Virus record (IMG/VR): IMGVR_UViG_3300008113_000067
Location: 1 to 50,639 of that record
Length of the DNA stretch: 50,639 nucleotides
Source of the DNA: a virus
Reading direction: 5' to 3' (one strand)
Below are positions 4,454 through 28,600 of the stretch, in pieces. Each line of letters opens with the position of its first letter. Position 1 is the stretch's first letter. Below the pieces are notes generated by a model, which saw only the letters and a list, made by a program, of their open reading frames with translations, was not told the DNA's origin and did not search any database. The position numbers were made by a program, and so were the translations under genes.

Positions 4454-4458
4454 TTTCT

Positions 4459-7400
4459 TTAATTTCTGCTTTGCAAGAATTTTGCATATGTGGTATCGCT
4501 AATTTGTAGCGGGTCACCATAAGTTACGATATTTTCACTGTTCCATGTAGAATTATATCCTGCTTCTGACAATTTTCTTGCATTATTAATGCCGTAACCA
4601 ATAGCATATTGTGAGTGGGTTCTTGCTGAACTTGTACCCTGAATTCCCCTAGTCAATCCAGTAATAGTATTGTTTACTGTATCAATATAATCAAATTTGA
4701 TTCTTTCTCCTTCGATTTCTACTATATTACCCACAGTCAACGTGATCCTGACTAAATCCCCTGCTGTTACTCCGCCAGTAAACAATACTGTAGGTTTACC
4801 GTCTAGTAAAATAATACCATAATTAGTAGAATCAATATTTTGACCAACAGTTACATTATATACCAATACTTCTTTAATTTCGTTAATATCACATTGAACA
4901 CGTGCATATGTGTTCAACCCGACAGTCACGACATTAACTGAGGTCGTAAATGTTTCCACTAAGTTAGATACATTGTAAAAATGCATAGTATCATCATTTA
5001 GTTCAAATTCTTGTGTTAGCCAAGAACCATCTTGTGGATTAGCTCTATATATTGATGCCTCACTATATTTGTTTATACTATAATTGAAACTCATAGAGTT
5101 AGGACTTGCACCAGTAACCATTGATGTTACAAGTAACAAATCAGTAGTATCTAGGTTAGCAAATATTGACAATTTATTGTCTACTGAGGTAGTTATTGCT
5201 GAAGATGCTACAGTTTGTGAGATATCGACTTCATAAGTTCCTATGCCACCAACACCTGATATCATTCCCACAATATATGTATTAGGTGAGATACTAGAGC
5301 CAAATATTTCTTGACCTATATTTATTAGTCCAGATGCTATTGCAGTAACAGTTAATGTTGTTCCAGATATACTTCCTGTAAAACTAGCACTTGTGCTAAA
5401 TCTTAAGTGCTGTGGATTTAAACGTTGACCATTGATAGTGAACCATGTTCTAGAACCATCTGTATATGTCATATCAGGTAATATAGGAGGTTCCATATGA
5501 CCCGGGGTAGCCGGAGTAGGTATTTGAATTGTAGAACTATCTAGCCATGCATACCCGCCACCTGTGTATCCACCAAAGTCCGGACCTACTACAGGTGTAG
5601 TTAATCCAATATCAGTATACAAGTTATAAAGTGTGGCTGAGATTTTATCTACATAATAAGTCATGTTGTTTATACCGCTTGTTCCAGATACATCATCAAT
5701 TCTAATTATATCTGTATCAACGAATCCCGGATCACTTGTAAACGTAACTTCCATTGGAGTTTTACTATGGTCTACATAGCTAATAGCAGTTACATTGATA
5801 CCAGTACCACCTGTATAATCTGCTGTTGTTAAGAATTGACGCTCTGTATCATAGAACGTAGTAATTGCAATAACATCAGTTGATGCTGGTGTAGCAGTAA
5901 TTTGTAAGTAATTAGTACCGCTTACACTAGCAAATGTATATTCAGCACCAGTCAAATTAGGAGGAATTAATCTTTGTCCATTAACTTCAACAATAGAATT
6001 GTCAATGTTATCTCCTGTTAATGTTGTTAAAGAGTCATCCAATGCAAATCCATTTACAGGAACAATATCTGAACCCAAGAATACCTGAGTTTCAGGAATT
6101 GAATATCCATATTGTGTCAAATTATAGTCTGTGCGTGAATTACCTACAATAGAGAACGATACATAATCAGTGTTAGGATCAAGTGTAGTATTCAAAAATA
6201 ATAACTTCATAAAGTTAGTATAAGTGTAGGAAATTATATAATCTACATTGTATTCTAATTTGTTTAGTGTGCCGCCGGCAACAGAAACGTATACTAATGG
6301 ATCATTTACTATTTCTTCGTATTCAATATCAAAGATAAAGCAAGACCATCCAGTATCTTCATCTACCCTGATTGGGGTATATTTACTATTGCTTCTTATT
6401 AACTCTTTACCATTACCAACTTCATACATTTCAATCATAATTGATTTTCCTGCAGGTAGTGATTGATTAATTGTAATGATTTGATTATACCAATCTATTG
6501 AATAGGTATATGTGAATGTGCCAGTAGTTGTATTTTCATATATTCTATAGCTGTCATTAGTTACATCATCTATTATAAACACTGACATCCTTGTTGGGTT
6601 AACTACTACGTTATCAAAATTTATTTCTAAATTCAAATTAGGTTTAGTAACAGTAGAGACCATATTAAACCCGGTATGTTTATACCATATAGAACCATCG
6701 TTACCTAAATTCCAATATGCACCAGGTGCAGTATTGACATACATTGACAATGTGTCTGTAACTACGCCTGCTACCAATTCTTCTGGTCCGTACCCATACA
6801 AGAAGTCATTACCCTGTACTACATAGTACGGATCATCAACTTGAAGATTTGATAAATCTACCCAATTAATACCGTTATTACTTCTTAGAATAACATTCTC
6901 TTCACCCACTGCGTAGAAATAACCACCACTATAATATACAGAATTTAGATTTCTAGTAGGCACAGAACCACCAGTAGCTTGAGTCCAAGTGATCCCATTA
7001 CTTGAGTATATGATTAGTGCAATATCTGTACTTGAAGATCCAATCTTATCTCCCACAGCAACAAACAATGACCCACCACGTGCTACTGAGTTAAGATTAG
7101 CAGTTACTGCTGGACCAGAGATTGTACCCTGTACCCAATTATTTGTGTTGTTGCTATACCAAACGGTAGCTTCATCACCTACAACTGCTACCAATGTACT
7201 AGATGCTGCCACTCCGTTAAATCCAACTGTATCTAACGTTGGTTGTAAATCCCAAACTGTAGTTCCGTTAATACTAGTAACTACCCTAGATACTTCTGAT
7301 ATCGTAGGAGAACTTGTTCCTTGGCCGGATATAACTTGATATCCTAACCCGACACCTATATATCCAGTAAATGCCGGTATATCAATATATGCAATATCAT

Positions 7401-10400
7401 TTATAGTGTTATTTAACCTAGAAGCAAATGCGTAAACTTGAGTCCAAGCTAAGGCATCGGTACTTCTTAAGATAGTATTACCGGCACTAAAATAAATTCC
7501 ATTTACATATAATACAGAATTCATCGGGACATTAGGAGCAGATATCTCAGTAGAATCAAAACCACCTGCGCCAAATTCGATTGAATCGAATGCAGTAAAT
7601 TGACCTAGAGTCACCCATAACACAGCATCAAAACTAACTAAGATAGGCATCAATTCATTGGTACTAGTAATAACATAAACATCATCATCTGAATTATATG
7701 TTATATCAGTAATTCCTAATGACACGCTAGCAATCTTATAACTATTCCATGTACCTGTTTCATTGTACACTAGCACTAAAGAATGGTCAGTGGCATCACA
7801 AGCGGCAACTATTGTAGTTCCATTATACACGACTGCTTTTACGTTTACACCAGTTGGATAGAATGGTTCGTCACGCACAATGAAATCTAACGGTAATTCA
7901 TCTTCTGGTGCAAAAGCATTACCATAATAAACATTATTTGGATATGATATTCCCTTGACGAGTTGTTGTGCATCTTTGCCGGGCATGCCTACAGTAGGTT
8001 CATAATATGCTTCAATTCTATCTAACGCATTTAAGGCAGAATCAGAACTTAATAATGGATACCAGTGTGTGGGTGTAAACTCAGTATCGTTGTTTGCCTC
8101 AATACATTGCCATATTACGCCTGCATATGATACCACAGAACTTATATCATATCCGTATGCATAACTACTGCCAATTGGCTCTGGTAAGTAAGCATAATCT
8201 TCCCCGGATCCGTCCCATATAAATGATGAGTATGATACTGGTACTGTTAATAGTGCATCAGCATATATTGCAAGTTCATTATCACTTGTTGGTTTTACAA
8301 AATATTGTCCAAACTCTCCCACAGCAATACCATTGACGTTAGCAGAGAATATACTACCACCATTAACAGTTAAACCAACAACAATCTTAGCATCATTGAT
8401 AATATCAACACCACCCAACAATGAGCCAGCTATTACTATTACATCGCCCACAGAATAAATGTATCCTGAATTTACTATTTTAATATAGTATAAATTATCA
8501 ATTATCTTGGGGTTGAATCTAGGTCTGTATATTTTTATTATTGCACCGCCGCTAGTATTGAATCCGCTAGCGGTTATTGTAGCAGTTATTGTCGTTGAAG
8601 CTACAGATTGAGTTGTACTAACTGTATATGTACCTATTCCACCAAGACTGCCGCTAATTTGAGATACAATATATGTACCTGCAGTTACTCCAGAACCTGA
8701 AATAACTTGATTATTTTTTAATGTGCCTGCTGTAACACCAGTAACAGTAAGTGTCGTTGCATTAATAGATGCAGTAACTATTCCACTGCTAGTATTAACC
8801 GTGTATGTTCCTGTACCGCCCGATGCTGACAAGAATGCACTGATTACTGTTCCCGAAGGTACATTAATACCGTATACACTATCACCAACTACTAATGATG
8901 AACCATCTTCAATAGCAGTTACTGTCATAGTTGTTCCAGTTATACTTGCTGTAAAGTTTTTACCAGTATCATCATATGTGTATCCAGAATGTACTCTATA
9001 AAAATACATATTTCCACCATAGACTTGACCTGGTAGTAGTCCCAATGTATATGTTACATTTACTATTGCTTGACCGTTGACATCTGATAGAGTATTAATA
9101 GGTAATACAGCACCTTGCAGACTTGATAAGTTTGCATCAATAGCAGTACCCGCAATTGATATTGTACTAATTTCTCCACCAGCACCAATAGATTCTACAG
9201 TAATTAAACAATCATTTGGTATATATCCAGTTAAGAATAATAAAAGAGTTGTATCTGTTTCTGTTGCAGGATTACTTATGATAATGTTAGTATTAATGTC
9301 TATACTCACCACTACAGTATCGTATGGTATACCATAACCAGTAATATAGTCACCAACAGTAATACCAGTAGTACTTGCCATATTGATAATAGTAGCATCC
9401 TTGACTATTGAACCTGCTAATTGTGCAGTAGAAGGATAACCAAATAATGGACTTAGTGATGAGATAACATTTGGTATGATTCTAATAACATCTCCGACAA
9501 CATAATTAGCACCCGGGTTTATAACATCAGCATCATACGTTCCACCTAGTAATACATTGTATACTCTAAACGATGCATTTGTACCTGAACCACCAGAATA
9601 GTATGCTGATGTAATTACACTAGTTGGTTGTGCAACCTGCAATTTTACCGGGCTACTAGCGTCATTACCAATACTTAAGTATGGACTTGAATAATATTCT
9701 CCAGCTACCCATGGCTTAATTCTTGCTCTATAACTAGTTCTATCAAATTTTAGTGTCGTAGCCATTGTACGAACTTTAGAACTGTTCATTGTAGGTATGG
9801 CTCTTGCTCTGATACTTACGGTATGTGTATAGTCATTTGACATTAGTGTTTCATTAGTAAATTGAACACGATTAGTGCCATATATACTATCATCATATGT
9901 TTTATAGAATGAAACTAATGATGCATTACCAGTAAATGCAAACAACAATGCACTAATTTGAGTACTATTAATATAATAGTATCCATCTGGAATCATATTA
10001 ACTCCGTTAGTTGAAATACCCTGTGAGTAAACCAATTGACCAGTTACAAAGTTAGTTGATAACAATTGTATAGTGTTATCAACAAAGTTTATTCTAAAAA
10101 ATTCTGAAGTTTCTTCATAACTAGAAGAAAAAACGATTTCAGGAATAACTACATATCCTTCACCAGAATCAATAATATCAACACCTATGACTTTATCGTC
10201 GGACATCAAAGCTACTAGTTTAGCTTCTCTCTTAGGTGCAGGATATATTGTTGTGTCTACGTATGCAGTAACAGTAGGAATGTCAGCATACTGACTTCCT
10301 GAATCTAGTACTACTATGCCAGGCAAATCCATTATGATAGGAATTCCTGCATAATGGTCTACTGGCACAGTGTTATTGACACCGCGACTTATTCCACTTA

Positions 10401-13400
10401 ATATTTTGTGTACTCTATCAACGACAGTATAACCAATTATTTCATCTTCTATTTGTACAGTTCCTGCGACTGGTATCCCCTCAGCACTGTCTATGTAAAT
10501 TTCTATATCAACTGATGACATGAATTTAGCTACATTGCATATTGGTGTATTTGGTATATTTTTAATCAGAGTTCCATAACTAGCAAACCACTGGGAGTAC
10601 TCAGCAGAAGACCATATTGGACTATCTTCTGGGAATTCGTCAGGATAACTTGCGTACACCGGTGTAGTATCATCAGGTGGGCTAGACAATCCATATAGTA
10701 GTTGAGGTGAAACAAATCTACCTATTTCTGAATTATAGAATGCCGGTAAATCGTAATCTGTAAAATCACCCTCAAACACATCAGTCTTATTATACTGTAG
10801 GTAAAACTCTTTAACAACTACGTGGTAAGGTTTAAATTCATTTATATAGCCTTCTAATAAACTTTGGTTATCACGTTGAAACTTTTGATTAGTAGTTAAC
10901 TCACGTACTGAATAATTAACATCTGCAAAACTAGTTTTAGTTAGCCATGGCAAATAGTTTTGACTTTCAATATTTTCACTTTGAATATATTCAAATAACA
11001 ATATCAAACTCTTATTTCTATGTTCAAACAATGGACCTACATATATCTGTTCATTCAATGCACGAACAATGTATCTAGTTTCTGTTGAAGGGAAAAAATC
11101 AAATGATTCACCACTGAATGAATCTCCAAAGCCTGTTTTGTATTTCTGATAATTCCATAAAGTTGGTAAGAATTTTAATGTACCGTTTTGTACTCCAATT
11201 CGTACCCAAGTACTATCAGTGTAAATATAAACTTCACGATTACCTTGACTATTACTTGCAACACCTACTATTAATCCTTCAGTTGCTTCTGTAAGAGTTA
11301 GTAAATCAGTATAGATAGCTACATCCAATGCGGCTCTAGTACTATCACTATATCCTTCTGCCCACCAATAAATCTTTTCCCAATAATTAATAGTATTGAA
11401 TGTATCACCTTGTGCGACCAAGAATGTTGTATTACCAAATTCAAGTATAGGGTATAATGCTATGACTGAGTTGGCATATTCTAAATAATTTCTTAGTGCT
11501 TCTAATCTGTTAATAAACAAACTTTGTCTTGGTCTTACACTTACACCTATTTGTAATAATTTAGGTAGTGTTGGATCAGGTACTGTTGCACCGGTCTCGT
11601 CAGTACCTGATATACTGTCTAATAGTCTATCATATAATCCAACTGGATCATTGTATCCTTTATCACGATTTGGGAATCCTGATAAGAAGTCAGATGGATA
11701 TTCACTGCGAATTAATTCAAATTCTAAATGTCCTGAAGGGCCGTTTGCACTGTTACCATATCCCAAATGTAAATTAGTAGAAACATCATTTACATATTCT
11801 TGTGCATTATAAAATGCATATGTATTTTGTTTTAACGGAGCAAAGAAAGCAATACCAGAATTCTTTGGATCAGCAATATATCTTTCTAAGATTGAATCTG
11901 ATAATGTTTTACCTTGTAAACTGAATAGTCTATTTGTATTTCGCACCCAGAAATAATATTTAGGAATCAAATTATTATTGCTATCAGTAACTAGTGTAAC
12001 AGAATATGTTCCTATATCATATGGGACTCCTGGTCCTGTATAGAATGCAGGAGATACATCACTTTCTATCCATGAATAAACTGTGACTGTACTACCTGGG
12101 AATACTGTTCCCCAATACTTACTATTGTAAACTACATCATCTTGATGATAGTTCATAAATCTTGTTGTAGTAGTATTGAACCATAATTTACCTAGATGGT
12201 CTTTGGTCCAAACAATATTACCAACACGTAATTGAGGACCGTTATATCCAGCTGGGTCAGTAGAACTAATATAATCTAAATGTTCTGCTACAGTACCTAA
12301 TAGTTTACCTTGTAGCGGGTCTACATAATCTAAACCGATTAAGTTTTCATTGTTAGTATTATTATACAATGATACTTTTTGAATCTTTTCAACATCAACA
12401 ATTGGATCAGATTCACGGTATGAATGCCAGTTTGGTATTCCAGATTCATTAGTGAATACTAGTACTTTACCCTTTGTAGTTAGTGGTTTGAAATTAGGTG
12501 TTCCTACCATAACTACATTGTCATTAAATGCCAGTGCAGTACCGTACATAGGTTGTGCGCCATAATCCATTGCAATGTCATTGCATGATTGTGCGTATAT
12601 GTATTTTCCAATATTGAGTAAACTCTCGTCATATGATTGTATATAATCATACATGTATACACTACCTGCATTACTACTAACATCTTGGAAAGTTGTTAGA
12701 TTGTTATCAAATACTGTATCATTTTTAATGTTGTTATCATTACTAAAATCAAACGTAGTAGAAATATATCTGTCATTAGCAGGTGCGCTAACAACAAATG
12801 AGTTCTCATCATTAAATTTTACAGCATAACCAAATTGAGTTCTAGTTTGTAGATGAGGATCTTGAATAACTTGAGATTTGATATAGTCAGTAAAACCCAA
12901 CTCGTATAAATCATTACCATTGAATACACCAATGTTCAACTTATTATTGATTGGTCCTAAATTTATATCACGCAATCTAATTACCAAACGACCATCTTGT
13001 GTAGAATACGCAAAGGTGTTAGTTATGTTAAAACTGTTAATAGCATTTGCAACTGTGGCTGCATTGCCTGCAGGTATAGTCACTCTATAACCATTGATTA
13101 GAATATAGAACGGACTTGTTACGTTAGTTGCAATTAAACCTGTCATTATTCCAAATCGTTTTCCACCGTTCGTAAAACGATATACTGCACCTTCTTTTAA
13201 CGAATCGGTTACATCGAACGGGCTACCTATAATTACTTCGCTACCAAAAGTGTTGCAATCAACACTATATCCAAATAATTCACCTGGACGTAATTCATTT
13301 AAATTATCATAACCATATATTTGTTGAGTCAATACAAATTGTGCGCTACTAATAGTAACTATATCACCAGCATACATACCAATTGTACCAATGATTACAA

Positions 13401-16400
13401 AATTCAATATTACAACATATTTGTTAGTAGCTAACAATACACCATTGATATAAATTCTAGTTTGATTTGTTGGGTTGAACGCTAGAATAATAATATAAAA
13501 CTCATCAGGTCTTTGGTCATATTGAACTTCAATATTCTCTACTAACCTGTCATACATATATGCAATACCAGTATTAGGTAAACTCAAGCTGTAATCTGTA
13601 TACGGGGCACCTGCAAATAATTTACTACCGTCATAATTAGTAGCTAAACTATAACTAAACTGGTCACCAGCGGCTACCATAGGAGGAGAAATTGACCCAA
13701 CAAGACTAAAGTTAACACTAGCTATGTAAACATAAGACCCGGATGGTGCTGAGTATTGAATTGGTTCTATAACATAGAATGTTGTTTTATTAGTAGTAGA
13801 GTTATATGTTGCTGTAATCACAGTATAAACTGCTTCTTCACTAAATGTAATCTTATAAACTGTTTGTCCTACGTTAACTGTCGCATCTGCCATTTCTACA
13901 GTATAGAATGTAGTAGTGTTTGATCCAGGATCATATGCCTCGCTAGCGATAGTATACAAACGAGTACTTGCTGGACCGTTATTAGTAAACGTAACTTTAT
14001 CTCCATTGGCCAAATCACTTCTTTGGTCACCGGTACATACAAAATAATAATCTCCAGCACTTACTGTACTTGAAATAGTAGAACCAATTGAAGTATATGA
14101 TGTTACAAAGTTTACACGTTGTCCTTCAAGTAATGTTGGGTTTGGTGACAAACAATTTCCAGAACATACAAAATATGTCTTATCTAATAATGTTGCGGCA
14201 CCAAGCACAAGTCCAGAACTTGTATACGTTAGTGTTTTATCACGTTGGAATGCAAGTGCAGTATTATCATTCTTAGCACCTAAATACAGTATATTACTGT
14301 CACCGGAAATATCCATTGCATCGCCAACTCTACCACCAAAAATACTAATAACTTGTTCAAGTATAATACTGTTAATATTAGTTGCCGGAGGAATTCTATA
14401 AACAAAAATTTGACTTAGTATGTCATCAGGACTTGATACAATAATCAAATCATTACTACGTGTAATGCTTGTACCAAAATTACCACCTTCATCAATCGTG
14501 TTTCTCAAGTAGAAGAAGCCGCTTGAACTTATTGCATAGTGATACAACTTGCCTTCGCCTAAGTCTGACACAAAGTACCCTACATTAGGAATATGTGCAA
14601 CTGCTGTTCCAAAAGTAGTGTTACTACCTATATGTGATATTTGAGTACCTGGCGTAGGGTAATTATTTGTCTTTTCATACACTGTCCAAGTGCCATTAGT
14701 ATTTGCGTCTACCCAAACTTTATTAACTGAATATTCAGCATTTAATAATGGCAGAGCATCAATGTCTCTTGCCGTTATGACACGCTGACTTTGCAATAGA
14801 TAGCTTAAACCTTTTCCAGAAATAGAAGTTGTGCTAGGTGTTAATGTAGTTGAAACAACTAATGAAGTTAAGTTGATTACTTCATTGATAGTATGGAAGC
14901 CATTAATAAGTGGGTCAAAGTTTAAAATACCTATTGATTGATTTTTCAATAACCCATGTGGTTTATTAAACACAACGGTAACTGTGTCATTTAAGTTGTT
15001 AATAACGTTAACTACCAATGCACCGGTCGATACAGGTGTATATATTTGCCAAGTGTTATCTTTTTCTGCTACCCAAATATATTCGTTTTTATATATAGAT
15101 CCTATAGAAGAATCAGCAAGAGTTCCGATAGAGTATGCAATCTCGGTAACATCATCAATGTTAACATATCCTGCACTTGGTAATTTTTCTTGGTATGTAT
15201 AGTCTAGTGTAGGAAGAATATTTGTTGATGCAATAGGTCTTCCATAATTCTTAATCTTATACAACGGTACTGATTGTTCAGCACCGATAACAGGCTCATC
15301 TTGCACAATACTAATTATGCTTGGATTACCGGTCAACTCAGCTTCATTCAATGTTACTTCAATAAAGTTTTGGTTTAATAGTCCACCAAATTCGCCAGCC
15401 TTGATTGCCCAATTTTCATGCACTTCATAATTCAGTGAATTTTGTTGTAAGTTTATACCTTGTAATTTTGTTACACTATCAACTGTTCCTTTAACAGGAA
15501 TCATATTCTTATATAAATTAACTTGTGTAGCATCAGAGAAATTAGCATCTGCAAAATAAGTACGAGGTCTAAATCCAATTAATGATGCACTCAACAAATC
15601 ATTATCATTTTCTAAATTAGGATTGGTTGTGTCATAGAACATAGTAGCTTCATATGCTCTAGTACTAGGATTAGGTAACAATCCTTTTTGTATATCGTCA
15701 TAGCTTGTCTTAGACCACTGCGTATAATCAAATGTGGCACTCGGCAATATTACAATATTTTCTGCAATATAATAATCGTTCTTAAATCTGACAATCGTAC
15801 CTTTAGTATATTTTACATTCTCTTGCCATAATTCAATATTATCTTGGTTTATAATATAACCACTAGCATTAACTAATCCGTTCCATTCAGCAGATTTGGA
15901 ACCCTTAACATATATACGTTGTTGACGAAGTCCTGTAATCAAATTGTATATTACATCGTTAAACACAGTGACGTTATCAAAAACAACTACATGCTCCATA
16001 GAACTTAAATTAGCCCTAAAGAAAGACATACTATCACCCTCGTTTAAAGACTTGATGTTGAAATCTACACCGTTTCGGTTTATAAACAAGTCACTTGTTG
16101 CAATTGGTAACAAATTTTGATTTAATACAAAATTTTCTCTCTGTATAGTAAGTGGTTGAACTATGTTATTTTCTTTACTAACAAAAATATTTCTAGCATT
16201 AGGATTAACGTTGATGGAACTACCATAGTCCCATCCAGTTTTAACCCAATACAACATTTCCAATATCATTTGATCCCAAGTTAATTCTATACCATTTTCA
16301 ATATCCGTAAACTGTAGACCTTGACTAGTTAAGTATAATCCATGACCTCTTATAAATTCACACAATTCAGTAATTGTATTAAACTCATGACCGTATGGTA

Positions 16401-19400
16401 TGAGTATTGTACGTGGATAATAGTTTTTAGGGACTTGTACACTTAACCCATCAATTGTAAATGTATCATACAATCCATTAGTGATTGGTATTTGTGCAGT
16501 AAAGTATGTTCTATTTTGACTATTACCAAATACTTTATATCCGGTTTGAGTTTTTTGAACAATTACTGAACTATAAACTATAGTATCGCTAGGTTGATTA
16601 TCATATAATAATACACTATAACTATCATCTGGTATCAATAAAGAATTGTTTTTACTATTAGGTGTGCCTTTTTCTACATAAAAATTAAGTAAGTCTTTAT
16701 CGCTAAAGCCAGCTAACCTGTAAGACAATCTAACATCTAAATTTTTAATCAAAGTTGTGATACTAGTAGAACCATCAATACCAAATTGATATAGATAATC
16801 TACTAACCAATTGATGTAACTATGTACCGAGGTACCAGCACCATAAACAACCAAATTACTTATAGAATCTCTATAACGATTGTTATACAAGTATTGATTA
16901 AATTCTGTGTTAAACTTGTACTTGTCTACATCTATGCCTAAAGCAAAAAACTTAGCTGGTTTTAGCAATGCGGCAAGACGCATCAAGTCAAATGGCCATG
17001 TGCTACTTCTTAAATAACTAAATTCTGCAGGACCCACATCACCGACAGTCCACGGATTATCAAAGTCATTAGAATTATATGCATTCAATAAGAAATCAAA
17101 AGGTGATAATAAATTACCATTTGAATCAACAGGGATAATATTTAATAAGTCTGGTCTTATACGATTTTCGTTGATATAAGGATCACCGTCATTCCAAATA
17201 TAACCGTTGCTAATGTCTGTCCACATGTACGTGTTTTCGCTAGTATATGGTGCAATACCATATCTACTATCCCACCATGTTGGTTTATCAGTCAAACCTA
17301 ACATTTCCCAAGGTGCTAATGCTGGATTAGTTGTGTCATAGAACCATAAATAAATTCCGCGCCAGCTACCCTGTGTTATAACTTTCTTGCTATTCTTGTA
17401 AACACTCTTGTTATAGTTAAATGTAAACGGATTTGTAGAACTGAACAAATGTTCTTTATAATCAATACGATTTTGTCCAATCCAATTTAAAAACTGTGTT
17501 GAGTACATGTTTCTAAAATTCTCATAACTTATACCAACATCTCTAAATTCTCCAGGAACTATCTCATCATAGTTAATAGGTATCTTAGCACTAATTTTTA
17601 AGTTATTAAATATTCTTGTTTCAAATTCCAACAAGACACTATCACGGTAATCAGTTAGAGCTCCATTTTCGTATTTACCATATAACTTATTATAAGAACC
17701 ATCATGTCCTCTAATAAAATATGTGTCCGGTATGTAAGTACTATCTAATATTACACTCGGTATTGTTGCTGGATATAATCCTAATTTGGTAGGAGTGTTT
17801 GGTACAAAACTACCATAAGTTTGGTCATATTCTTTAATGACAATAACATCATTGTTAATCAAGTCTTTAGTAATTGTTAGACTTTTTTCTGTTTCAGAAA
17901 CTTCATAGTCTACTCCTCTTACTAATTGAGTAGTTGTAATTGCTCTGCCAATTCTTCTAGTCAAGTATACCAATACACTATAATAATTAGCTTCAGTAAA
18001 ATTATAAATTCTACTTAGATTAAAAATACTAGTTGAAATATCCGTTTTGAATGTGTAGGTATTGGTTACTGTTGCATTCTTAGAAGGAAGCATATCACTC
18101 CAAAAGAATGGATTGGTATTAATTCTTACCTCAGAAATCTTAGACATCACATCATCTAAAATATACGCGGAAGTTTGCAATGAAGTATATTCATTGTTCA
18201 CTAATGTGTTTATCAATAGGTTTTTAAATTTGATATATTCATTTGCATTATAACTTAGTGCATCAAAGAAATTATTACTGTTGTTACGCAAGAATGCTGA
18301 TGCATTTACTAATGGCGCACTATTTTGTATAATTCGCATGCCGTATGGCACAACATTACCAATATCTCTATAGTTATTAGCACCAAACGCTAAACCTTCA
18401 AACCCAGGTGCATTGTTACAAATACTCTTATAATGTCCTCTTATATCACCTGAATTAATAGTAGTAACTTCTGAATTGAAAGGGTTGTGATCCAAGTTAC
18501 TTGGTATTTGATAATATCCAGTAATACTGGTTTGGTCGCTATAAAGCATTATTACGACCTTAGTACCCATTAATGGTGGTGTAGATAATGTTACTGTAGT
18601 CGTAGTATCAGTTGTAATTACAGCAAAAGAAGAATTAGAAATTCTAGCGTTATCTACATAAACAACAATTACCGGCCATGGTGTGGTCGTTTGATCCTTA
18701 ATTGCAACATCTAAAGTGAATTCAGGTGATATAGGAGTTGCATTATATGTTTTTTCAAATACTTGATACTGGAAACTTTCACCTGGAGCAGTCTCCCAAC
18801 CTACATTACGTACATAATCGGTTCTAGTAGAATAATCATATACATAACCACTATTAACTACTTCAGTGACGGATATCCCGCTTGAATCATAGTTAAATGT
18901 TTGTGTATTCAAGCTAACTTCAAATGAGATATCACCTAAATTATTAAATGAACTATATTTGATTGGGAACCCCAATACTATATCGTCAGCTCCTGTGCCA
19001 ATTGCATATTGAAATAATGTGCAACCTTCAAAATCAGTACTTGGATAAAAATCTCGGTCTCCAAAACTTATACTGTTGCTGTCAAAAATATCAAACAACG
19101 GTGGTTGATTGACACGTTCTTTAAATTGTGCTTGTATCCAGTTAGTACCGTCAAAGTAAAAACTTTTACCCTGATATACGTAACCTTGTGTTATAACCGT
19201 TTGTTCATTATAACTTACATCACCATCATCTGCTTTAGCTAAACTAATAATCGGAGCAGGTTGAATTAATGTTGGTTGTGAATTACTAAACACGCCCGGA
19301 TTAGTATCATATTCTAATGTTACCGTGTTTAATGAACTACCCACAGCAACGTAATTACCGTTATATAATTCATTGCTATTACCAGAAACTGTATAAGTTA

Positions 19401-21690
19401 CGCCAAGTGCTGGTGGTGTAAGCTGAGTAGGTATATTTAATGTTACTATATAAGGTCCTGAACCTGTTTTAGAACTAAAAGTGACTGTACTTGTGACTCC
19501 ACTTAAAGTGATAAAATTACAAGTCCAAATCTTATTACGTACTTCTACATCTGTATCACCGGCAAAGATAATAGTTGCACCATCATACAATACTGAATTA
19601 ACTCCGTCTGGTTTAAAATTAGGTTGTCCGGCAACTTCGTTAAATGCATCTGTAGCAGAGAAGTTGATGAAACTTGTATTTGGTTTGGCAACAGTACCTG
19701 ATTGGTATAATTTTAAATTAGGGTAAAACTCGATGATTGGTCGCTTTGCTCTCTTATCTGGGTTACCTAAGGCCTCTGTACTTATGGGACTAACTAAACT
19801 TTTTTCAATTACAGTGTTTAGTACATCAACATGAAACCAGCGATTACTGCGACTCCATGCATTCTTATTAAAACTATTTCTTGCGATAGTTATGTAATCA
19901 GGTGATAATGGATAGAATAATGTTTCTCCCCATGGAAAACTATCAAACGGTTCTCCATCAAAAGGTGAGGTGTAAGGTGTACCAAATGGTTCAGGAATAT
20001 CAAAGTTGTCAACTGGTAATAGTTGTATGCTAGCACCTACGCCCTCTACATAGTATTGACCTTGTGCATATATTTCTGGAAAAACATTTCCAGAAAATTG
20101 AACTTTTAATCCATTAGTAAATTTAATATCGTTTGGACTAGTATATACTTTCTTACCTAATATTTGATTAATATCAATAATATCAGTACTCACACCATCT
20201 ATCAAACGTATTAAACCAACTTTTTCTGAGTTAGAGCCATCTTGGTAATATAAAGTATCTAACGATGCTGTTAAATTAGGTATCAAAATGATATCGCTAT
20301 AACTGTTCTTTACAAACTTTCTACCAATATACTCTGTACCATAACGAATAGTCAAGTTTGTGTTGTCAGGTAATACACCTTCTTCTGTTAAACGAATAAC
20401 ATAATTATCTTCATCACCTAAGAAATTAATTTTATAATAGTGTTTGTTGATTTCAGTAGGTACTGCATCTTCTAATAAACCTTGATCCACTGTTCCCAAC
20501 ATTGTTCCGGTGTCAGTTGTTAGACCAATTACAGTACCATCAGGCTCGTTAGATATGCTAAATGTAGTTGAACTATCAATTGTTTTTACATAGTATGTGC
20601 CGCCTGCATCAAGTCCGCCAATTGCAACGGTACCCATAGTAATTGTTTCATTCAAACTTAAACTAGCAGTAGAATCACATGTTAGTAAGTCAGTACCAGC
20701 ATTAGTGCTAGAAATTGTAACTGTTACAGTAGAGGTAAGTGTAGGATCATTTATATCATATCCTTCACCAAAGAACTTGCTTATATATCCTAGTGTGCCT
20801 GGGGCTGTTCCATAAAACAAAAGTGTTTTATTTTGCAAGTCAAAAACATTGTCAATAGATTCTATGCTATCTACACGTTGGCCATTAATTTGGTCAAATG
20901 ACAATGTAGTTGCTATATCTATATCTAAGTTACCAGTATATACAAAGTCATTTTGTGCATCTGCACTTGGTACAGTAAATGTTATTGTTCCGTTATTTGT
21001 TCCGTTATTTTCTACACCGTATACTTCTCTGGTGCTTATATTTGGTCTAGCGTCACTTACGCCACTTACGCCAGGTACTGATTGAATATAGAAATTACTA
21101 GGTTGGTCTACTACAAACTGATAGGTCCCGCCCCTAATCAATGTTATAATTGGATTGAGTTGATTTATTACATTTTCACCTGCCACAAATTCATATCCAA
21201 TAGCTTTAGATGTTACTCCATAAGTCAATGATTTATACAATGTGGTATTGGTAATAGTCAATGCTTCAGGACCATTGGGCAACCAGTAATATTGGCTATG
21301 ATTGATTAGTTTATCTAAATCAACAAAGCTATCCCAAGAATAAAATTGATTAGCGAACAAATTATTATTGTTATCAGCATATCCACCTTGTAGTTTGATA
21401 CTGTCTAAGAATCCAGGATATGTTAATAAGTCAACCGCAATCTTGGTATCTTTCTTTTTAAAAACTACTGTAGGTTCTAATTGATAATCAGTTCTAATTT
21501 TAGAAGGTTCTGTAAGATACTTGTCTCCGGAACTAATTCCGTAGCCAAATTTACTACCAATATATCCTTGTATTTTTTTGAAATCAGGCTGTTGTACTAG
21601 CTGGTCTAGTGTAGCAGATAAAAACTGGTTGTTAGTCCTAGTCTTAAATATATCCGGTAAGAAATCAATTGTTCTAACTTTTGTTACCAT
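4459..21690 (-). CDS. Giant (5743-residue) phage structural protein with two predicted beta-propellers
   Basis: One uninterrupted frame occupying a third of the window. The N-terminus ([20 protein letters not shown]) and the central Trp/Tyr-rich part (about 1400-1520) look like the very large tail proteins of aquatic T4-like phages. Residues about 2350-3095 hold seven FG-GAP-like blades (such as [19 protein letters not shown] and [17 protein letters not shown]), as in integrin-type propellers. Residues about 4610-4955 hold Asp-box-like repeats ([26 protein letters not shown]), suggesting a second propeller. Ig-like SGTTLTVT modules occur at 4246-4373 and 5437-5504. No enzyme motif or membrane segment was seen. 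It is directly downstream of gp6, so a baseplate-associated adhesin or fibre is likely; this is inference. The start has only a weak AGG ribosome binding site, so coupling to gp6 (17 bases upstream) may help. Confidence 0.8.
5180..5382 (-). repeat. Third copy of the SGTTLTVT Ig-like module
   Basis: Encodes residues about 5437-5504 of the giant protein, starting [18 protein letters not shown] and including [16 protein letters not shown]. It aligns with the two tandem copies at 8572-8955, with the conserved order SGTTLTVT, an I-x-G-x-x-I turn, GGIGTY and a Ser/Thr-rich end. Confidence 0.65.
8572..8955 (-). repeat. Two tandem Ig-like SGTTLTVT modules
   Basis: Encodes residues 4246-4373 of the giant protein: two copies of about 58 and 70 residues back to back. 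Copy one has [14 protein letters not shown] then [13 protein letters not shown]; copy two has [14 protein letters not shown] then [16 protein letters not shown]. Such modules are widespread in phage tail and decoration proteins and probably form beta-sandwiches. Confidence 0.65.
9225..9411 (-). repeat. Module shared with the inserted block of the 403-residue protein
   Basis: Encodes residues about 4094-4155 of the giant protein, including [19 protein letters not shown]. This is the counterpart of the insert at 1024-1218. Confidence 0.55.
12405..14640 (-). other. Region encoding a predicted seven-bladed FG-GAP-type beta-propeller
   Basis: Encodes residues about 2350-3095 of the giant protein. 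Seven repeats follow the pattern F/Y-G-x-A/S-V/L ... V/I-I/V-x-x-S/G-A/T-P ... G-x-V/A-Y-x-Y/F. They begin [48 protein letters not shown] and YGTALAFN. Longer insertions separate blades three and four and blades five and six. The blade count is by eye; the fold is a prediction. Confidence 0.55.
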
Positions 21691-21707
21691 TATTATTACC
21701 TATAAAA

Positions 21708-24700
21708 TTAACTTGTTGGTTGTAGTTCGCTTGGAGTAAGAGCAGTTATAACTGTAATATCAGTTGCTTGTGCCGCACTTACAAAAATCTCATATGGAGC
21801 ACTATGTATCTCGTACAAATCTCCAAAACTTAATGTATTGTCATTTGGTACTAGGACGACTGAACTAACTAAGTCACCTATTTGTGAATGCAGATACGCA
21901 CTCAATTCACTAAAATAGAATGTATCTCCAAAGTCCCAATTATCAATGCTGAAATACGTATTAATTTCTGACAGTACGGTTGTACGTATTTCACTATCGC
22001 TTGCTGTGGTAGTGGCAGATTTTATCACCTTGATTGTTGCACGTAATTGCGGCACTGCCTTATCACCAAACAAAGGTTTAAATCTAGCACTGTTAAGTAT
22101 GACACTATCTGATAACATTTTATACTCGTTTACTTTACTGTATGCAGTAGTTAAGTCATTGATACTAGGTCTAGTAGGTTCTTCTAGTGTACCAGTAGTA
22201 TCACGAATCCAATTAGTGTAGGCAGTATAATAACTTTGACTTAACACATATAAATCAATAATGTTAGTTGTACCTGGATCAATTCTAGTTGTGTCACCTG
22301 AAATATGTTTATACTGGAAGTATAATCCTTGACGACCTGTTTTTACTGTGTATGTTGTTTGCAATTCTAAATTAACAATATTTGCTGAGGTAGTATCATT
22401 AACTGACTTATAGAATTTACCTTCTAAAACTGCATAGTAAACTTGCCCAACAGGATATTCATATTTAATAATTCCAATATCAGCTTGCGTACCGTATGCA
22501 TATACAATATCAGTTGAAGGGACCATTTCATAACGTGATAACAAATTTGCATCAGTTACACGTTGGAAGAATACAAAGTTTTGTAGATTTCTAGTGCCAG
22601 GTACATATCCAGTCACATCTATGAAGAAGTCCGGATTCTTTAAACTACCCACTGTAGTTAAATCTGCTGTGCTAACTTCTACACTAAAGTCATCTACATA
22701 TCCATCTGCCTCTACAGTTTGCCCGATTACACTTAATTTGATATCACGAGGATATGGAAAATTATAATTAGGTTGTGTATTACATTTTAAAATGCTAATG
22801 AAGTCTTGCAATAACTTACCGGTTGCAGGGTCATATATTACTTTGTCCCTGTCAAATGTAAATCTGACATCGTACACACTACCAAAATAATATTTTACGC
22901 TATGCCATGCTACTAGATATCTATTATATCCTAAACTTTGAAATCTTACAAAATAATTATTAGCCGAGTAACTACTAGTTGCCCAACGTTCTTGATTTGC
23001 TAATAAACTATTATCATATACTAGTGAAAAATTTTGATTCAAACGAATTTTAGTAACACACTCTTGTATTAATTCTGTACCCAATGAATTTGTAAAGCTA
23101 GGTATAATGACACTTAATATTGCTCCGTCAGGAATTAAATTTGTTAATGTTACTGGACCCAAACCAGTATCTAAGTTGCCGTCACCGCCATTATATCCAT
23201 CGCCAACAACACTTGATACACTAGTCCAAATAGATTGTAAATCACTTGGTAATGGTAAACCAGCAACAAGTCTATTGTCTGGTCCAAAGTAATAACCACT
23301 CGGTGCAACAAATCCTAATAAAGCACCTTCAGTAACATACTTTACATTACCGGATGAATATACACCAACTGAGATAGGTAAAGTTGTGTAAAAATATCCC
23401 GTTGACTCGCCTGATTGGTTACTGGATTGATTCCAATATACTGCTTCATCGTTTACTAGATATCTAGGATAAGCCTGAGTATAGTATTGATATGTTCTTT
23501 CACCACCTAATACACTGGGTAAATATTCTGTTAAAAAGTTTACAATATCATTTGTGGTGCTAGCAGTAAAAATAGTCACACCATCATTGATATCTTCGTA
23601 CAGTCCGCCATCATCTGCAAAATCATTTGTGCTGGAATATTTTGCACTTGGATCTAACAAATCAAAATTGCGACTGGTGCCTACACTACTACGATTAATA
23701 GCTTTGCTTTTAATAATTGAACTGTATAATGTGAATGGGAAATTATTATAATCTTCACCATTAACCATACGATTTTGTGTGTAGTAACGTTGTGGGGCAC
23801 GTTCTTTAATATCAGCAATTGTCTCACGTGCTTGTGCAGTACTTACCGGAAGTTGTAAATCAAGCGTCATTGTTACTGTCTCTTGTCTTCCAGTACGACT
23901 TAAATAATTTAAAGACAATGTAATACTTTGGAATTCGCTTGGGTCGATTGTATATGTCAATCCATTACCAGAACGAACATAACTTATAAAAGAACCAACT
24001 GGTATTTCGCTGAACACACCATCACCAAATACATATGTTACTTGGTCATTGGTTCTAGAGTTTACGCTAAAAACTTTTTTGCCACTAGTTAATTTTTGTA
24101 AACTTCCATTTTCATAAACACTATCTACTTGTTTCCATCTACTGTATTGTCCAGTAGTTGAGTTAATTTCATATAACCATGTGTCAGTATTATTAACACC
24201 TTGAATATCAATATCTACTATCTGATTACTAATTTGCTCAGGTACATTAAATGAATATGTCTTTAATGCTCCTTGCTTAAAATATAAGAAAAACCCTGTA
24301 TTAGGACTGCCATAACCCAATTTATCATTTCTATATAATAAATTAAAAACATTTGAGTTACCAGGAGGTATTTCATACACTGAATCACTATCTACGCTGG
24401 TTACGCTAACTGCTTCAAAATTCATTGAATTGCCATCGACGGTAGCTGTAAACGGAATAACTGGTACATCGCCTGTTGGTAACAATATGCTATATTCGTC
24501 AGTCTTAATATTCAACAATACATTTGTATTTCCGGGTTTTCCGATACGTTGTGTATCTATAAGAGCGGCGTTAATGATAGTATTAAACTGTTCTTGCCAA
24601 TTTGGGTTTGCTGGGTCATTCCATAATACAGTAAGATTACTCAAACTTAAGTTAGTTACATCTCGTATTTGTTCTGAAGTGCTAATGGATGTAATCTTTA

Positions 24701-25052
24701 CATACCCCTGGCCAGCAATATTTCTTTTAGGTGTATATCCTACTAAGTTAGCTAACTTGATTACGCTGTCCCTACGTTCAGCAGTATCAATAAAATTCTC
24801 ACGTGCATTCAAATCGCCCCTAAAACTTAGGGCTTGACCCATATATGCGATAACGTCCATTAAAGCAGAAAATTCACTGCTTTCAATATAGTCATTGAAT
24901 GTTTCTGGGTAGTATAAGCGAAGGTAATCTACAAATGTCTTACGCAGTGTTTCATAGTCATAACTCTGAAAATCAGCTTGACTATAGTTTTTGTAGATTG
25001 ATTTCCAATCATTTACACCAAAAATACTTGATTGTCTTGAACTTGTGGCCAT
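21708..25052 (-). CDS. gp6: Baseplate wedge protein gp6
   Basis: 1114 residues, much longer than T4 gp6 (about 660). The N-terminal region is diagnostic: YDYETLRKTFVDYLRLYYPE (31-50), a conserved helix ALMDVIAYMGQALSFRGDLN (63-82) and ARENFIDTAERRDSVIKLAN (83-102) followed by GYTPKR. This is the gp6/baseplate-J-like family, which dimerises to form the inner ring of the baseplate and joins wedges together. The central part is beta-rich and larger than in T4; the C-terminus (SEIRTTVLSEINTYF and following) is also typical. A GATAAATA box lies 21 bases upstream of the ATG. The giant gene begins 17 bases after its stop, so both are probably on one late transcript. Confidence 0.9.
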   Translation of the reverse strand: MATSSRQSSIFGVNDWKSIYKNYSQADFQSYDYETLRKTFVDYLRLYYPETFNDYIESSEFSALMDVIAYMGQALSFRGDLNARENFIDTAERRDSVIKLANLVGYTPKRNIAGQGYVKITSISTSEQIRDVTNLSLSNLTVLWNDPANPNWQEQFNTIINAALIDTQRIGKPGNTNVLLNIKTDEYSILLPTGDVPVIPFTATVDGNSMNFEAVSVTSVDSDSVYEIPPGNSNVFNLLYRNDKLGYGSPNTGFFLYFKQGALKTYSFNVPEQISNQIVDIDIQGVNNTDTWLYEINSTTGQYSRWKQVDSVYENGSLQKLTSGKKVFSVNSRTNDQVTYVFGDGVFSEIPVGSFISYVRSGNGLTYTIDPSEFQSITLSLNYLSRTGRQETVTMTLDLQLPVSTAQARETIADIKERAPQRYYTQNRMVNGEDYNNFPFTLYSSIIKSKAINRSSVGTSRNFDLLDPSAKYSSTNDFADDGGLYEDINDGVTIFTASTTNDIVNFLTEYLPSVLGGERTYQYYTQAYPRYLVNDEAVYWNQSSNQSGESTGYFYTTLPISVGVYSSGNVKYVTEGALLGFVAPSGYYFGPDNRLVAGLPLPSDLQSIWTSVSSVVGDGYNGGDGNLDTGLGPVTLTNLIPDGAILSVIIPSFTNSLGTELIQECVTKIRLNQNFSLVYDNSLLANQERWATSSYSANNYFVRFQSLGYNRYLVAWHSVKYYFGSVYDVRFTFDRDKVIYDPATGKLLQDFISILKCNTQPNYNFPYPRDIKLSVIGQTVEADGYVDDFSVEVSTADLTTVGSLKNPDFFIDVTGYVPGTRNLQNFVFFQRVTDANLLSRYEMVPSTDIVYAYGTQADIGIIKYEYPVGQVYYAVLEGKFYKSVNDTTSANIVNLELQTTYTVKTGRQGLYFQYKHISGDTTRIDPGTTNIIDLYVLSQSYYTAYTNWIRDTTGTLEEPTRPSINDLTTAYSKVNEYKMLSDSVILNSARFKPLFGDKAVPQLRATIKVIKSATTTASDSEIRTTVLSEINTYFSIDNWDFGDTFYFSELSAYLHSQIGDLVSSVVLVPNDNTLSFGDLYEIHSAPYEIFVSAAQATDITVITALTPSELQPTS

Positions 25053-25112: not shown

Positions 25113-25589
25113 TTACGAACGTGATACCCCTGGCATTAAAGATGATACACGTGCCATCCCTGAATCAGTATCAAACATCACTGCCATTTGTTGAACTACA
25201 TTAAATGGAGATATAGCAAATTCCATTTCAACCAAAATTCCATTATCTTGTGGATATGAAATTACACTGTTAAGAAGCAATCTAGGGTCAAGGCCTGCAA
25301 CTCTTTTCAATTCTCTCTCAATTTCTATTTGGGTATCTAGTGTATTTGGTTCATACACATAGCTCCATACTGTTGTGCCATATTGCGGTTTACCGGGTTT
25401 TTGTCCTTGTGGTATATTTAATGCATTTAAGAAATCTTGTATAACTAAGTCTTGGTCAACTATTCTAAATTTTTTGTTTACTCTTATTGGATTAGTGATA
25501 GAGCCAGAACCTCCGTCTACTCCCGAGGCAACTTGGCTCCTTCTAACCTGGTCAATGTGTAATGTGCTAAATCCTATAAATGTTGCCAT
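25113..25589 (-). CDS. gp25: Baseplate wedge protein gp25
   Basis: 158 residues, the expected size for the gp25/gpW-like family that nucleates sheath assembly on the baseplate in contractile machines. The N-terminal half has GFSTLHIDQVRRSQV; the family core includes a GKPQYGTTVWSYVYEP stretch (66-81), DTQIEIERELKRVAGLDPRL (85-104) and a C-terminal strand ILVEMEFAISPFNVVQQM. It lies between gp5 and gp6, matching the way wedge genes cluster in T4-like genomes. A CATAAATA box lies 18 bases upstream and an AGGATAT ribosome binding site precedes the ATG. Confidence 0.85.
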   Translation of the reverse strand: MATFIGFSTLHIDQVRRSQVASGVDGGSGSITNPIRVNKKFRIVDQDLVIQDFLNALNIPQGQKPGKPQYGTTVWSYVYEPNTLDTQIEIERELKRVAGLDPRLLLNSVISYPQDNGILVEMEFAISPFNVVQQMAVMFDTDSGMARVSSLMPGVSRS

Positions 25590-25607: not shown

Positions 25608-25615
25608 TATTTATG
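25608..25615 (-). promoter_or_regulatory. Late promoter box CATAAATA before gp25
   Basis: Minus-strand CATAAATA, ending 18 bases before the gp25 ATG and overlapping the stop codon of gp5. Confidence 0.55.
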
Positions 25616-28600
25616 CTGTTTGTCCTGCGTCACCGCTAGCAATTTTGCCTAGTTCTTCTCTTAGAGTTTGTACCTTCTGCATTGAGGCTTTATATGCTTC
25701 ACTTGTTGTATCTACTTGCTCTTGTGTTCCTTTACCCTGACTTAAAGCATATTTTGCATCTGCGGCAGCTTTTCTTGTGACCCACATATTATCTTCTTCT
25801 TTTGCTATTTCAGCTTTTACTTTATCATATTCTTTTACTTGGTCAGCACTCAATGGTTTAGTAGGTATTTTAACTCCACCAAGATTTAATGGAGGAATCT
25901 TGTCATCACCCAATAATGATTTAGATTGTGCTAATATTCCACCAAAATCAAATGTGTTTGATGCAACAGTAGGTCCTTTAACTTCAACTGAGCCTGGGCT
26001 ACCAACACTGGATATAGCCCCTTGAAACTCTGCGGCTGCTTCAGGATCTAGCCCAGTTGAAGCAAGTGCCTCAAGACCTCCTTTACTTGCTAGCGCAGGT
26101 TTAGCCCCGTTTGATGCCTCTTTAACACCTTTGCTGCCTTTAGAAATAGATCCGGCTAATTTCTTAACAGTAGCAACTAATCCTGCAACACTAGCTAATC
26201 CAACAGTTTTGCCTGCTATAACTACTCCACCAACTGCTCCGGTACCACCAAGTAATCCCGGTATGCCAGGTACACCACCTTTAGTTAATGCGTTGGTTGC
26301 TAAATTAGCTAACTTCTTAGTAGTTTCATTCTGAGGTTTGTCAAATGTGTTTGCTAACGTGTTGCTTACACTACCACCTGTTGTCCCACTTTCTAATGGT
26401 GGAATTCCTAATCTAGAACGTATGAACGGGTCTGTTGGGTCTGCGTTACCAAGAGATTTGATTTGACCTTCACTTAGACCTGCATATGGATTGGTAACAG
26501 TGACTTCAGATGCTGTTGCTTTATTAGTTGGCGCCGGTTCTGCTGAAGATTCTTTAGCATTAGCAACCGTTAGATTCTGAGGTTGTTTACCCTTCAATGC
26601 TTTAAATGCTCCTGTTATTTTTGCGAATGCACCGGCTACGGCGCCTTTTAAACTATCTCCTATTTTTACTCCACCCAATGGTCCTGATTTATCAGCTACA
26701 TTAGATGCCGCATTTCCGCTAGCAAGAGCAGTCTTTGGATCAGCTAACGGATTAGGTAGTTTAAGACCTAATCCACTAGCCGCAGTTAATTTTGATGATA
26801 GCGCATCTAGTGCCGCTGAGCCAGGTGCCCCGTTTCCACCTATTGCGTTTTTTGCTAATTTTAACGTTAGTCCTAGCCCTGCAGTTGCTACAGCAAGCAT
26901 TAATCCACCTTTTTGTGTTATACTTTCTTTACCAGTTATTAAACCTGTCTCTTTTAACTTTGTTTCACTTTGTGATAATAATGTTGTTGCGGCAGTTGTT
27001 TGTGCCGGTGTGTTGTTTACTAAACTAGTTAAGGAAGATACACCATCTTTACCTGTAAATACGTTTGGTGGCATAGCTTGCGATAATGTAAGACCTCTTG
27101 ATAATCCTGCATTTATTGCAACATCTGCGCCTGGCTTTACTATTCCAGCTTGTTCTAATTGTGTTGGTGTAAGAGCCATTGGGCCGACGCCAGCAACTGT
27201 TTGTCCATCAGAGCTAACGACGCCAGCTGTTTGAGTTACAGCCGAACTCATAGGTCCGTCTGACGCATTAACTGCCATTTGCGAAACAAGTGTACTTGTT
27301 GATACCTGTGATACATCTGACGATGCAGCCTTTACATTTGGTACAGTTGCGGCAACTGCAGGAGTTGTTGATTTTACTTGGGTCCCTGCGACAGAACTAT
27401 TTACTTGTGCTAAACTAGGAGAGGGTGATGCAGGTAAATTAGATGACGCTGATGAATCAATTTTCACATCCACCCCTTGATTAGCACTTGCCCATGGTGC
27501 ATGTGCAGGTGCCCTACTTACAATACTTGATAGTTTTCCAGGAGCTGGTGCATATCCTTTTTTATCATCACGCAATGTATCAGTGTGTGCAATCACAGTT
27601 AATTGTTTAACCTCTTCTGGTACTAGTGAACTAGCTCCGGTATTCAATTTTACATCCGGGCCGCCATTTAAATAATTTGTACCACCGCTTTTAATACTAC
27701 TATCACCCGAACTTTCAAAACTCATTTTGCTATTAACTTTTACAGTATGGTCACCTTTAGTAAATTGTTTAAAGGTTGTACCTGCAAATTGTTGTGTTGC
27801 TTCTAAACTTTCTGTATTAATATTTGTAGCAGATACATTTAAATTTTTCCCAGCATTGATGTTTATATTATTATCAGCATGTAAGTTTAAATCACCCTGT
27901 GTTCTAATGTTAACTGAATTAGTAGAAAACATATCAATAGTGCCTTCTTTACCTAACTCAATGTAACTTAATCCATTTGCATGAATGATAAAAAGCGTTT
28001 GTGCAAAATCATTCATCAGTATCATGTGACCGTTAGATGTTCTTAATCGTAGTAACTGGTCTCTGCCTGATATATCGCCGTCATCCATCACAAATGTATG
28101 ACCACCGGTACGACCTGTAACTTTAAAACTTGTATCTGGTATAGATGAATCTTGTACAGCACCAACAATACTTGTATTGTCGTATCCACCTTGAAATATA
28201 GGTCTACCCGGAGTACTCATACCAAAGACCCTACTAGGACTTTCACGTTGGGCGCTACTAGATATTGCTCCTCTATCAGGATCTCTTAACAAACCTTGAT
28301 TATTAAGTACAGCAGTTTGAAAACTATGTATTGGTCTAGGTAAATCTTGTGGTGTAGAACTGTTTGCTTGTTTATCGTCAGCATCATTATATTCAGTTAC
28401 AGGTAATCTATCTGCACCTCCATACGATTCTGCTTCTCCATCATTTGGAATTACATTGGCAGTTGCGCCAATTGCAGGCACCATGTGTGTCAATGACGGT
28501 TGCGGTATACCACCTATATAATATCCATTGCCCGGGTCACCGTTAATGAATATACAGATAACCTGTGTACCTAAATCAGGGGGTGTAGCCCAAAAACCGT

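What the first reader, a model, noticed from the sequence alone, without database searches (positions are those of the whole stretch)
4459..21690. A 5743-residue phage structural protein in a single 17.2-kb frame
One uninterrupted frame covers 34% of the window. It is one of the longest open frames expected in any phage this size. No stop breaks it and it overlaps neither neighbouring gene (gp6 upstream ends 17 bases before it). Domains change along its length: conserved N-terminus, aromatic core, propeller-like parts and Ig-like modules, suggesting growth by domain addition. It probably forms a baseplate or fibre organ of unusual size.
Basis: partly seen in the sequence, partly recalled or inferred. 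Interest (0 to 1): 0.75.

Follow-up and report, generated by a model that had tools for sequence, protein, structure and literature searches.

The report
Giant jumbo-phage baseplate protein, intact
The 5743-residue reading frame is real and unbroken, and it is an ordinary-sized member of a large, mostly uncultured family of giant virion proteins encoded directly behind baseplate gene 6 in jumbo phages; the cultured members are shorter but already known.

Summary
In detail: one frame, 4459-21690, minus strand, 5743 aa, ~633 kDa, 17 bases behind gp6, coding-like throughout. It is not an assembly join. A separately assembled contig carries the same gene with 11 SNPs (one amino-acid change), and eight distinct full-length genes of this clade (window included) run 5281-6444 aa. 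A 50-record check gave frames up to 6542 aa. Interrupted frames are rare (3 of ~95 loci).
It is not isolated: it matches PHROG 10938 (E 2e-184) and 57 sequenced jumbo phages (PA5oct, Atu_ph07, RaK2, 121Q, CBB, SCTP-2 types), which encode 3.3-4.6 kaa homologues at the same locus. Published mass spectrometry finds homologues in phAPEC6 and CBB virions.
The window is a fragment of a jumbo-type phage, so 'for a phage this size' misleads. The protein is a conserved core (about 1-170, 550-2150, 3100-3700) plus a conserved C-terminal cap; extra length is mostly inserted internally, including propeller-like repeats.
Best reading: a gp7-position baseplate wedge/rim protein carrying surface-binding modules. 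Homology to T4 gp7 was tested and not found. Cyanophage P-SSM2 already has a 5195-aa protein at this locus. Known kind; modest interest.

The parts
4459..21690 (-). giant virion structural protein, 5743 aa, gp7-position, family of PHROG 10938
   Evidence: ORF and coding signal; PHROG hit E=2.1e-184; 57 jumbo phages by tblastn; single frame in relatives
21181..21690 (-). residues 1-170: conserved N-terminus (helical, low model confidence up to about residue 110)
   Evidence: aligned in cultured jumbo phages and 72+ relatives; model
20041..21093 (-). residues 200-550: beta-sandwich insert containing a mobile FCCH-like module at about 301-400
   Evidence: absent or shorter in cultured phages; beta-rich model; foldseek local matches to E1 FCCH domains (assignment to 301-400 is inference)
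15241..20043 (-). residues 550-2150: conserved core, aromatic-rich
   Evidence: alignment A1 with invariant W/Y/G/P columns across 17 phages; occupancy mostly over 0.9 in 86 sequences apart from 701-850
12421..14703 (-). residues 2330-3090: FG-GAP repeat region, beta-propeller-like insertion
   Evidence: Pfam FG-GAP_2 E=1.8e-9, 38.1 bits over a 23-bit cut-off, two stretches; poorly conserved in cultured phages
10591..12393 (-). residues 3100-3700: second conserved core with a helical segment at about 3535-3618
   Evidence: alignment A2; AlphaFold model
4771..10593 (-). residues 3700-5640: variable zone where relatives gain or lose modules
   Evidence: occupancy and identity drop (occupancy partly lowered by truncated loci); no tblastn match of residues 3731-5743 in 50,697 phage records
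8011..8253 (-). residues 4480-4560: weak CBM5/12-like motif
   Evidence: below Pfam cut-off: E=0.013 in the window, E=0.017 in relative L047
6811..7893 (-). residues 4600-4960: repeated W/G motifs, second propeller-like region
   Evidence: Pfam DUF6242 E=5.8e-5, below its curated cut-off; propeller reading is inference
4462..4728 (-). residues 5655-5743: conserved C-terminal cap (xIxGExIxFxxIDxxxNTIxGLxRGxxGT ... DPLQISxTxxAxFL)
   Evidence: same module at the extreme C-terminus of PA5oct, Atu_ph07 and Phosso proteins, hhalign P=1.1e-8
21708..25052 (-). gp6-like baseplate wedge protein, 1114 aa
   Evidence: TIGR02243 E=5e-9, below cut-off; Gp6-like_1st E=3.7e-4, below cut-off; tblastn to annotated gp6 of jumbo phages and cyanophages
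25113..25589 (-). gp25-like baseplate wedge protein
   Evidence: PHROG 975/261/43
25611..28889 (-). gp5-like baseplate hub protein
   Evidence: PHROG 13211 E=2.3e-41
31742..32047 (-). baseplate wedge subunit in the gp53 position
   Evidence: PHROG 7145 'baseplate wedge subunit' E=1.3e-20; annotated as gp53 type at the same place in CBB and Vibrio phage 2.275.O
3666..4286 (-). 206-aa protein directly downstream, same position and similar size in several jumbo phages
   Evidence: PHROG 11259 E=3.1e-65; ~200-aa genes after the giant gene in PA5oct, Phosso, SCTP-2, Vibrio 2.275.O (their homology was not tested)

Best explanation
The frame encodes a giant structural protein of the contractile-tail baseplate of a jumbo-type phage distantly related to the T4 superfamily. 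It sits where T4 has gene 7 and most likely does a comparable job: it binds the gp6-containing wedge through its conserved core and extends outward as the body or rim of the wedge, in about six copies per virion (about 3.8 MDa in all, if six). Between the conserved core and a conserved C-terminal cap, lineages have inserted beta-propeller, beta-sandwich and possibly carbohydrate-binding modules, which probably contact the cell surface or dock fibres and pass the binding signal to the baseplate. Shown: intact gene, family, synteny, core-plus-insert anatomy. Shown by published work for homologues: presence in virions. Inferred: wedge location, copy number, gp6 binding, surface-binding role of the inserts.
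For: PHROG 10938 'virion structural protein' E=2.1e-184 and 4.9e-77 on two thirds of the protein. Homologues in 57 jumbo phages, each a single gene directly after gp6 in the records read. PA5oct homologue marked ESI-MS/MS; phAPEC6 gp245, 381.9 kDa, 17 peptides, next to baseplate wedge gp244 (PMC7247149; homology inferred from size and position in a 121Q-type phage); CBB_236, 21 peptides (PMC5259590). Neighbours are gp6-, gp25-, gp5- and gp53-position proteins. Core and cap conserved, inserts variable. FG-GAP repeats. P-SSM2's 5195-aa protein after gp6 belongs to a small cyanophage-type set whose N-terminal profile matches the T4 gp7 core, P=1.4e-9.
Against: No sequence homology to T4 gp7 or Mu gp48 detected in any segment tested. 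No confident match to a solved baseplate protein for either model. No direct virion data for this phage. Carbohydrate-binding and second-propeller calls are below curated cut-offs.
Confidence: 0.72

Rival explanations
1. It is chiefly a host-recognition fibre or adhesin organ, attached to the baseplate but not part of the wedge.
For: Adhesin-like content of the variable zone: FG-GAP, propeller-like repeats, weak CBM5/12 match; the PHROG 38233 tail-fibre match falls in the C-terminal third.
Against: Roughly 2400 residues of core are conserved across phages of very different hosts and the gene keeps its place directly after gp6; host-range fibres usually vary most and move around.
Confidence: 0.17
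2. It is a polyprotein cut into several virion proteins after translation, so that no 633-kDa chain exists in the particle.
For: The locus encodes a head-maturation-type protease; peptide coverage of homologues in virions is low (7.6-7.7%), so full-length chains are not proven.
Against: That protease type acts on head proteins; no cleavage signal was identified; the N-terminal and C-terminal ends are both conserved.
Confidence: 0.07
3. The frame is an assembly or chimera artefact.
For: None found; three relatives show interrupted frames, of which at least one looks like a sequencing error.
Against: Separately assembled contig with 11 SNPs and one amino-acid change; eight distinct full-length genes incl. 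the window; 50 of 50 records with no stop inside the match.
Confidence: 0.01

Closest known systems
Jumbo-phage 'virion structural protein' of PHROG 10938 (PA5oct gp355 3857 aa, Atu_ph07 gp180 4449 aa, Phosso 294 4555 aa, SCTP-2 140 3807 aa, 121Q 582 and RaK2 ORF070w about 3.3 kaa, CBB_236 3340 aa)
   Same: Homologous core, C-terminal cap (in PA5oct, Atu_ph07, Phosso), gene position directly after gp6, single frame, virion protein by published MS for several
   Different: The window protein is 1200-2400 aa longer, with larger insertions at 200-550, 2200-3100 and 3700-5640; its residues 3731-5743 find no match in sequenced phages at E 1e-5
Uncultured clade in IMG/VR (G002-G065)
   Same: Same architecture and length range, single frames of about 4.2-6.5 kaa, 41-71% identical in the core
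   Different: Module content between residue 3700 and the cap differs from lineage to lineage
Cyanophage giant gp7 (P-SSM2 PCMG_00114, 5195 aa; S-SSM7 gp7, 3007 aa)
   Same: Giant frame directly after gp6 in a T4-superfamily phage
   Different: The cyanophage-type proteins carry a T4 gp7-like core at their N-terminus; the window protein has none detectable, so large size at this locus may have arisen separately
T4 gp7 baseplate wedge protein, 1032 aa
   Same: Gene order gp6 then gp7; presumed place in the wedge
   Different: 5.6 times shorter; no detectable sequence or fold similarity in the segments tested

Membership tests
PHROG 10938 jumbo-phage virion structural protein | significant match to the family profile over most of its length | tested here: met
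   E=2.1e-184 (profile to 1464) and 4.9e-77 (profile 1465-2133 of 3324)
PHROG 10938 jumbo-phage virion structural protein | gene directly downstream of a gp6-type baseplate wedge gene | tested here: met
   window gp6 17 bases upstream; same in the phage records read
PHROG 10938 jumbo-phage virion structural protein | present in the virion | not testable with these tools
   only homologues: PA5oct annotation, CBB and phAPEC6 proteomes
T4 gp7 baseplate wedge initiator | sequence homology to gp7, including its gp6-binding core | tested here: not met
   hhalign of every segment against a six-phage gp7 profile at noise level; positive control cyanophage-type N-terminus against T4 gp7 P=1.4e-9
T4 gp7 baseplate wedge initiator | same fold as gp7 | tested here: inconclusive
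   models of residues 1-1190 and 3060-3960 give no confident PDB match; residues 1191-3059 and 3961-5743 were not modelled
T4 gp7 baseplate wedge initiator | synteny gp6-gp7 | tested here: met
FG-GAP beta-propeller proteins | FG-GAP repeats above the curated cut-off | tested here: met
   38.1 bits against a cut-off of 23, two stretches; a complete propeller was not modelled
Carbohydrate-binding module family 5/12 | match above curated cut-off | tested here: not met
   15.9 bits against a cut-off of 26.2

The most novel reading that the evidence does not exclude
In this uncultured clade the giant protein has taken over host recognition: propeller, beta-sandwich and sugar-binding modules inserted between the wedge core and the C-terminal cap form a built-in receptor-reading rim of the baseplate, in place of separate short fibres.
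Probability: 0.2. Interest if true: 0.6.

Novelty: new member of a known kind. Interest (0 to 1): 0.33.

Why it matters
It shows that single baseplate proteins of 600-700 kDa are the rule in a large group of uncultured jumbo-type phages (at least 590 encoding stretches of the family in IMG/VR). It also says where the extra length goes: mostly into insertions between conserved elements rather than onto the end. Six copies would add about 3.8 MDa to the baseplate. It gives a concrete target for cryo-EM in cultured relatives and a warning that gene callers or annotators should not split such frames.

Tried and rejected
Assembly artefact: rejected. T4 gp7 homologue by sequence: not supported. Mu gp48 homologue: not supported. 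A weak profile match to P-SSM2 (residues 3716-3786, P=6e-4) was first taken as the gp7 core; it covers P-SSM2 residues 70-137, outside the part that matches the T4 gp7 core, and looks like a small shared module, so it was dropped as evidence. Some very strong hhalign scores over two columns against S-SSM7_103 were discarded as alignment artefacts. A motif count for GxGYxxxPxV repeats was only slightly above chance in the window (4 against 0.8). Solved-structure sequence searches gave nothing useful. Fold searches of the two models against the PDB gave only local or low-probability matches; against BFVD the second model finds the Atu_ph07 homologue and uncultured-phage 'YHYH' proteins. Testing whether the C-terminal modules occur as separate downstream genes in cultured phages gave no signal. 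Tape-measure protein considered and set aside: both models are beta-rich and homologues lie in the gp6 operon.

Full report
Observation. The frame 4459-21690 lies on the minus strand, starts with ATG, encodes 5743 residues (~633 kDa) and has no internal stop. It takes up 34.0% of the window. The gp6 frame (21708-25052) ends 17 bases upstream and the 206-aa gene downstream (3666-4286) does not overlap. At its base composition, 5743 open codons have a chance of ~6e-201, and each 300-codon block fits the phage's own codon usage best in this frame.

Not an assembly join. A separately assembled IMG/VR contig (L043, record G001) spans window 3956-23856 with 18 SNPs, 11 of them in the gene, and the protein differs at one of 5743 residues. 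Eight distinct full-length proteins of the clade, the window included, are 5743, 5706, 5281, 5284, 6145, 6444, 6169 and 6046 aa, with conserved first and last residues; three of the relatives were assembled twice, with at most one base of difference. In 50 further records the frame holding the core carries no stop inside the match and reaches 6542 aa (stop-to-stop; some are cut by contig ends). Against the 5706-aa relative, dN is 0.22-0.48 and dS about 1.5-3 (near saturation; undefined in one segment) along the whole gene, variable zone included.

Exceptions. Of about 95 loci, L105 has one in-frame stop near residue 1530, L117 has two frame changes, and in L080 the last ~640 residues lie in a separate overlapping frame with its own ATG. 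These may be sequencing errors or real fissions; the reads are not available.

Genome context. The window is a virus fragment without end repeats. It carries portal (PHROG 213), head protease (PHROG 207), a gp5-type hub (PHROG 13211), gp25-, gp53- and gp6-position wedge genes, a T4_baseplate (PF12322) protein, an SbcC/SbcD-like pair and a sugar-nucleotide cassette. The order closely resembles that of PA5oct (286.8 kb), 121Q (348.5 kb), RaK2 (345.8 kb) and CBB (378.4 kb); Atu_ph07 (490 kb) shares the gp25-gp6-giant block. Some IMG/VR relatives sit on contigs of 315.8 and 344.2 kb. So the phage is very probably a jumbo-type phage, and the length should not be judged against 50 kb.

Family. PHROG 10938 'virion structural protein' (profile 3324) matches at E=2.1e-184 and 4.9e-77. 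tblastn finds 57 sequenced jumbo phages, with single genes of 3326-4555 aa directly after gp6 in the records read. The last third of the window protein (residues 3731-5743) finds nothing there. A core profile finds at least 590 encoding stretches in IMG/VR. Published proteomics finds CBB_236 with 21 peptides (PMC5259590), and phAPEC6 gp245 (381.9 kDa, 17 peptides) next to baseplate wedge gp244 (PMC7247149). PA5oct's protein is annotated ESI-MS/MS.

Anatomy. Alignments of 17 and 86 sequences show a core at about 1-170, 550-2150 and 3100-3700, with insertions at 200-550, 2200-3100 and 3700-5640. Occupancy at the C-terminal end is partly lowered because many loci are cut there. The last ~90 residues are a cap that is also found at the extreme C-terminus of PA5oct, Atu_ph07 and Phosso proteins (hhalign P=1.1e-8); for the 121Q/RaK2/CBB group the match is weak (P=1e-3). 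So growth has been mostly internal. Inside the insertions: FG-GAP repeats at about 2330-3090 (E=1.8e-9, above cut-off), a weak DUF6242 match at about 4889-4943, and a weak CBM5/12 match near 4514-4535.

Structure. AlphaFold models of residues 1-1190 (mean pLDDT 79) and 3060-3960 (81.5) are beta-rich, with helices near the N-terminus and at about 3535-3618. PDB fold search gives only local or low-probability matches, such as cupredoxin-type sandwiches and E1 FCCH domains for the first. BFVD returns the Atu_ph07 homologue and uncultured-phage proteins, and, weakly, the cyanophage Bellamy 'baseplate wedge initiator'.

Relation to T4 gp7. Position agrees, but profile comparison of every segment with six gp7 sequences is at noise. 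As a positive control, the N-terminal profile of four cyanophage-type gp7-position proteins (P-SSM2, S-SSM7, Melnitz-1, Cr30) matches the T4 gp7 core at P=1.4e-9. P-SSM2's protein is 5195 aa and follows gp6, so giant proteins at this locus have a cultured precedent. The window family may have reached such size separately; that is inference.

Mechanism. Shown: an intact gene, family, synteny and core-plus-insert anatomy. Published for homologues: presence in virions. Inferred: that the core joins the gp6 wedge, that six copies are present, and that the inserted modules bind cell-surface sugars or dock fibres.

Verdict. Real, intact, not exceptional within its clade, and a longer member of a known virion-protein family. 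Interest is modest and rests on the size, the internal mode of growth and the lack of any solved relative.

Noticed in passing
window 38115-40378 (+): Sugar-nucleotide cassette inside the structural/recombination region: cytidylyltransferase (PF01467), PfkB kinase (PF00294, together resembling a split HldE), cupin/mannose-phosphate-isomerase-like, and NAD-dependent epimerase (PF01370).
   Followed up: no
L003:19275-28568 (Salicola phage SCTP-2): The gene in gp6 position is itself a giant, 3096 aa, next to the 3807-aa homologue of the window protein.
   Followed up: no
L080:19875-21830; L105 near 9980; L117:9470 and 13108-13126: Rare relatives with interrupted giant frames; in L080 the C-terminal ~640 aa form a separate overlapping frame with its own ATG.
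   Followed up: partly
L060:2562-21656 (cyanophage S-SSM7): Two ~3000-aa proteins, both labelled gp7, flank a gp9-like connector gene behind gp6; P-SSM2 has one 5195-aa protein at that place.
   Followed up: partly
window 4462-4728 and about 10366-10467: The short module xIxGExIxFxx...GLxRGxxGT occurs at the C-terminal cap and, weakly, at residues 3742-3775; similar modules recur in relatives.
   Followed up: partly
window 256-1467 (-): The small downstream protein carries a 'GIxxGQxIxGxGVP' repeat like those inside the giant protein's variable zone (seen by eye; no PHROG match).
   Followed up: no
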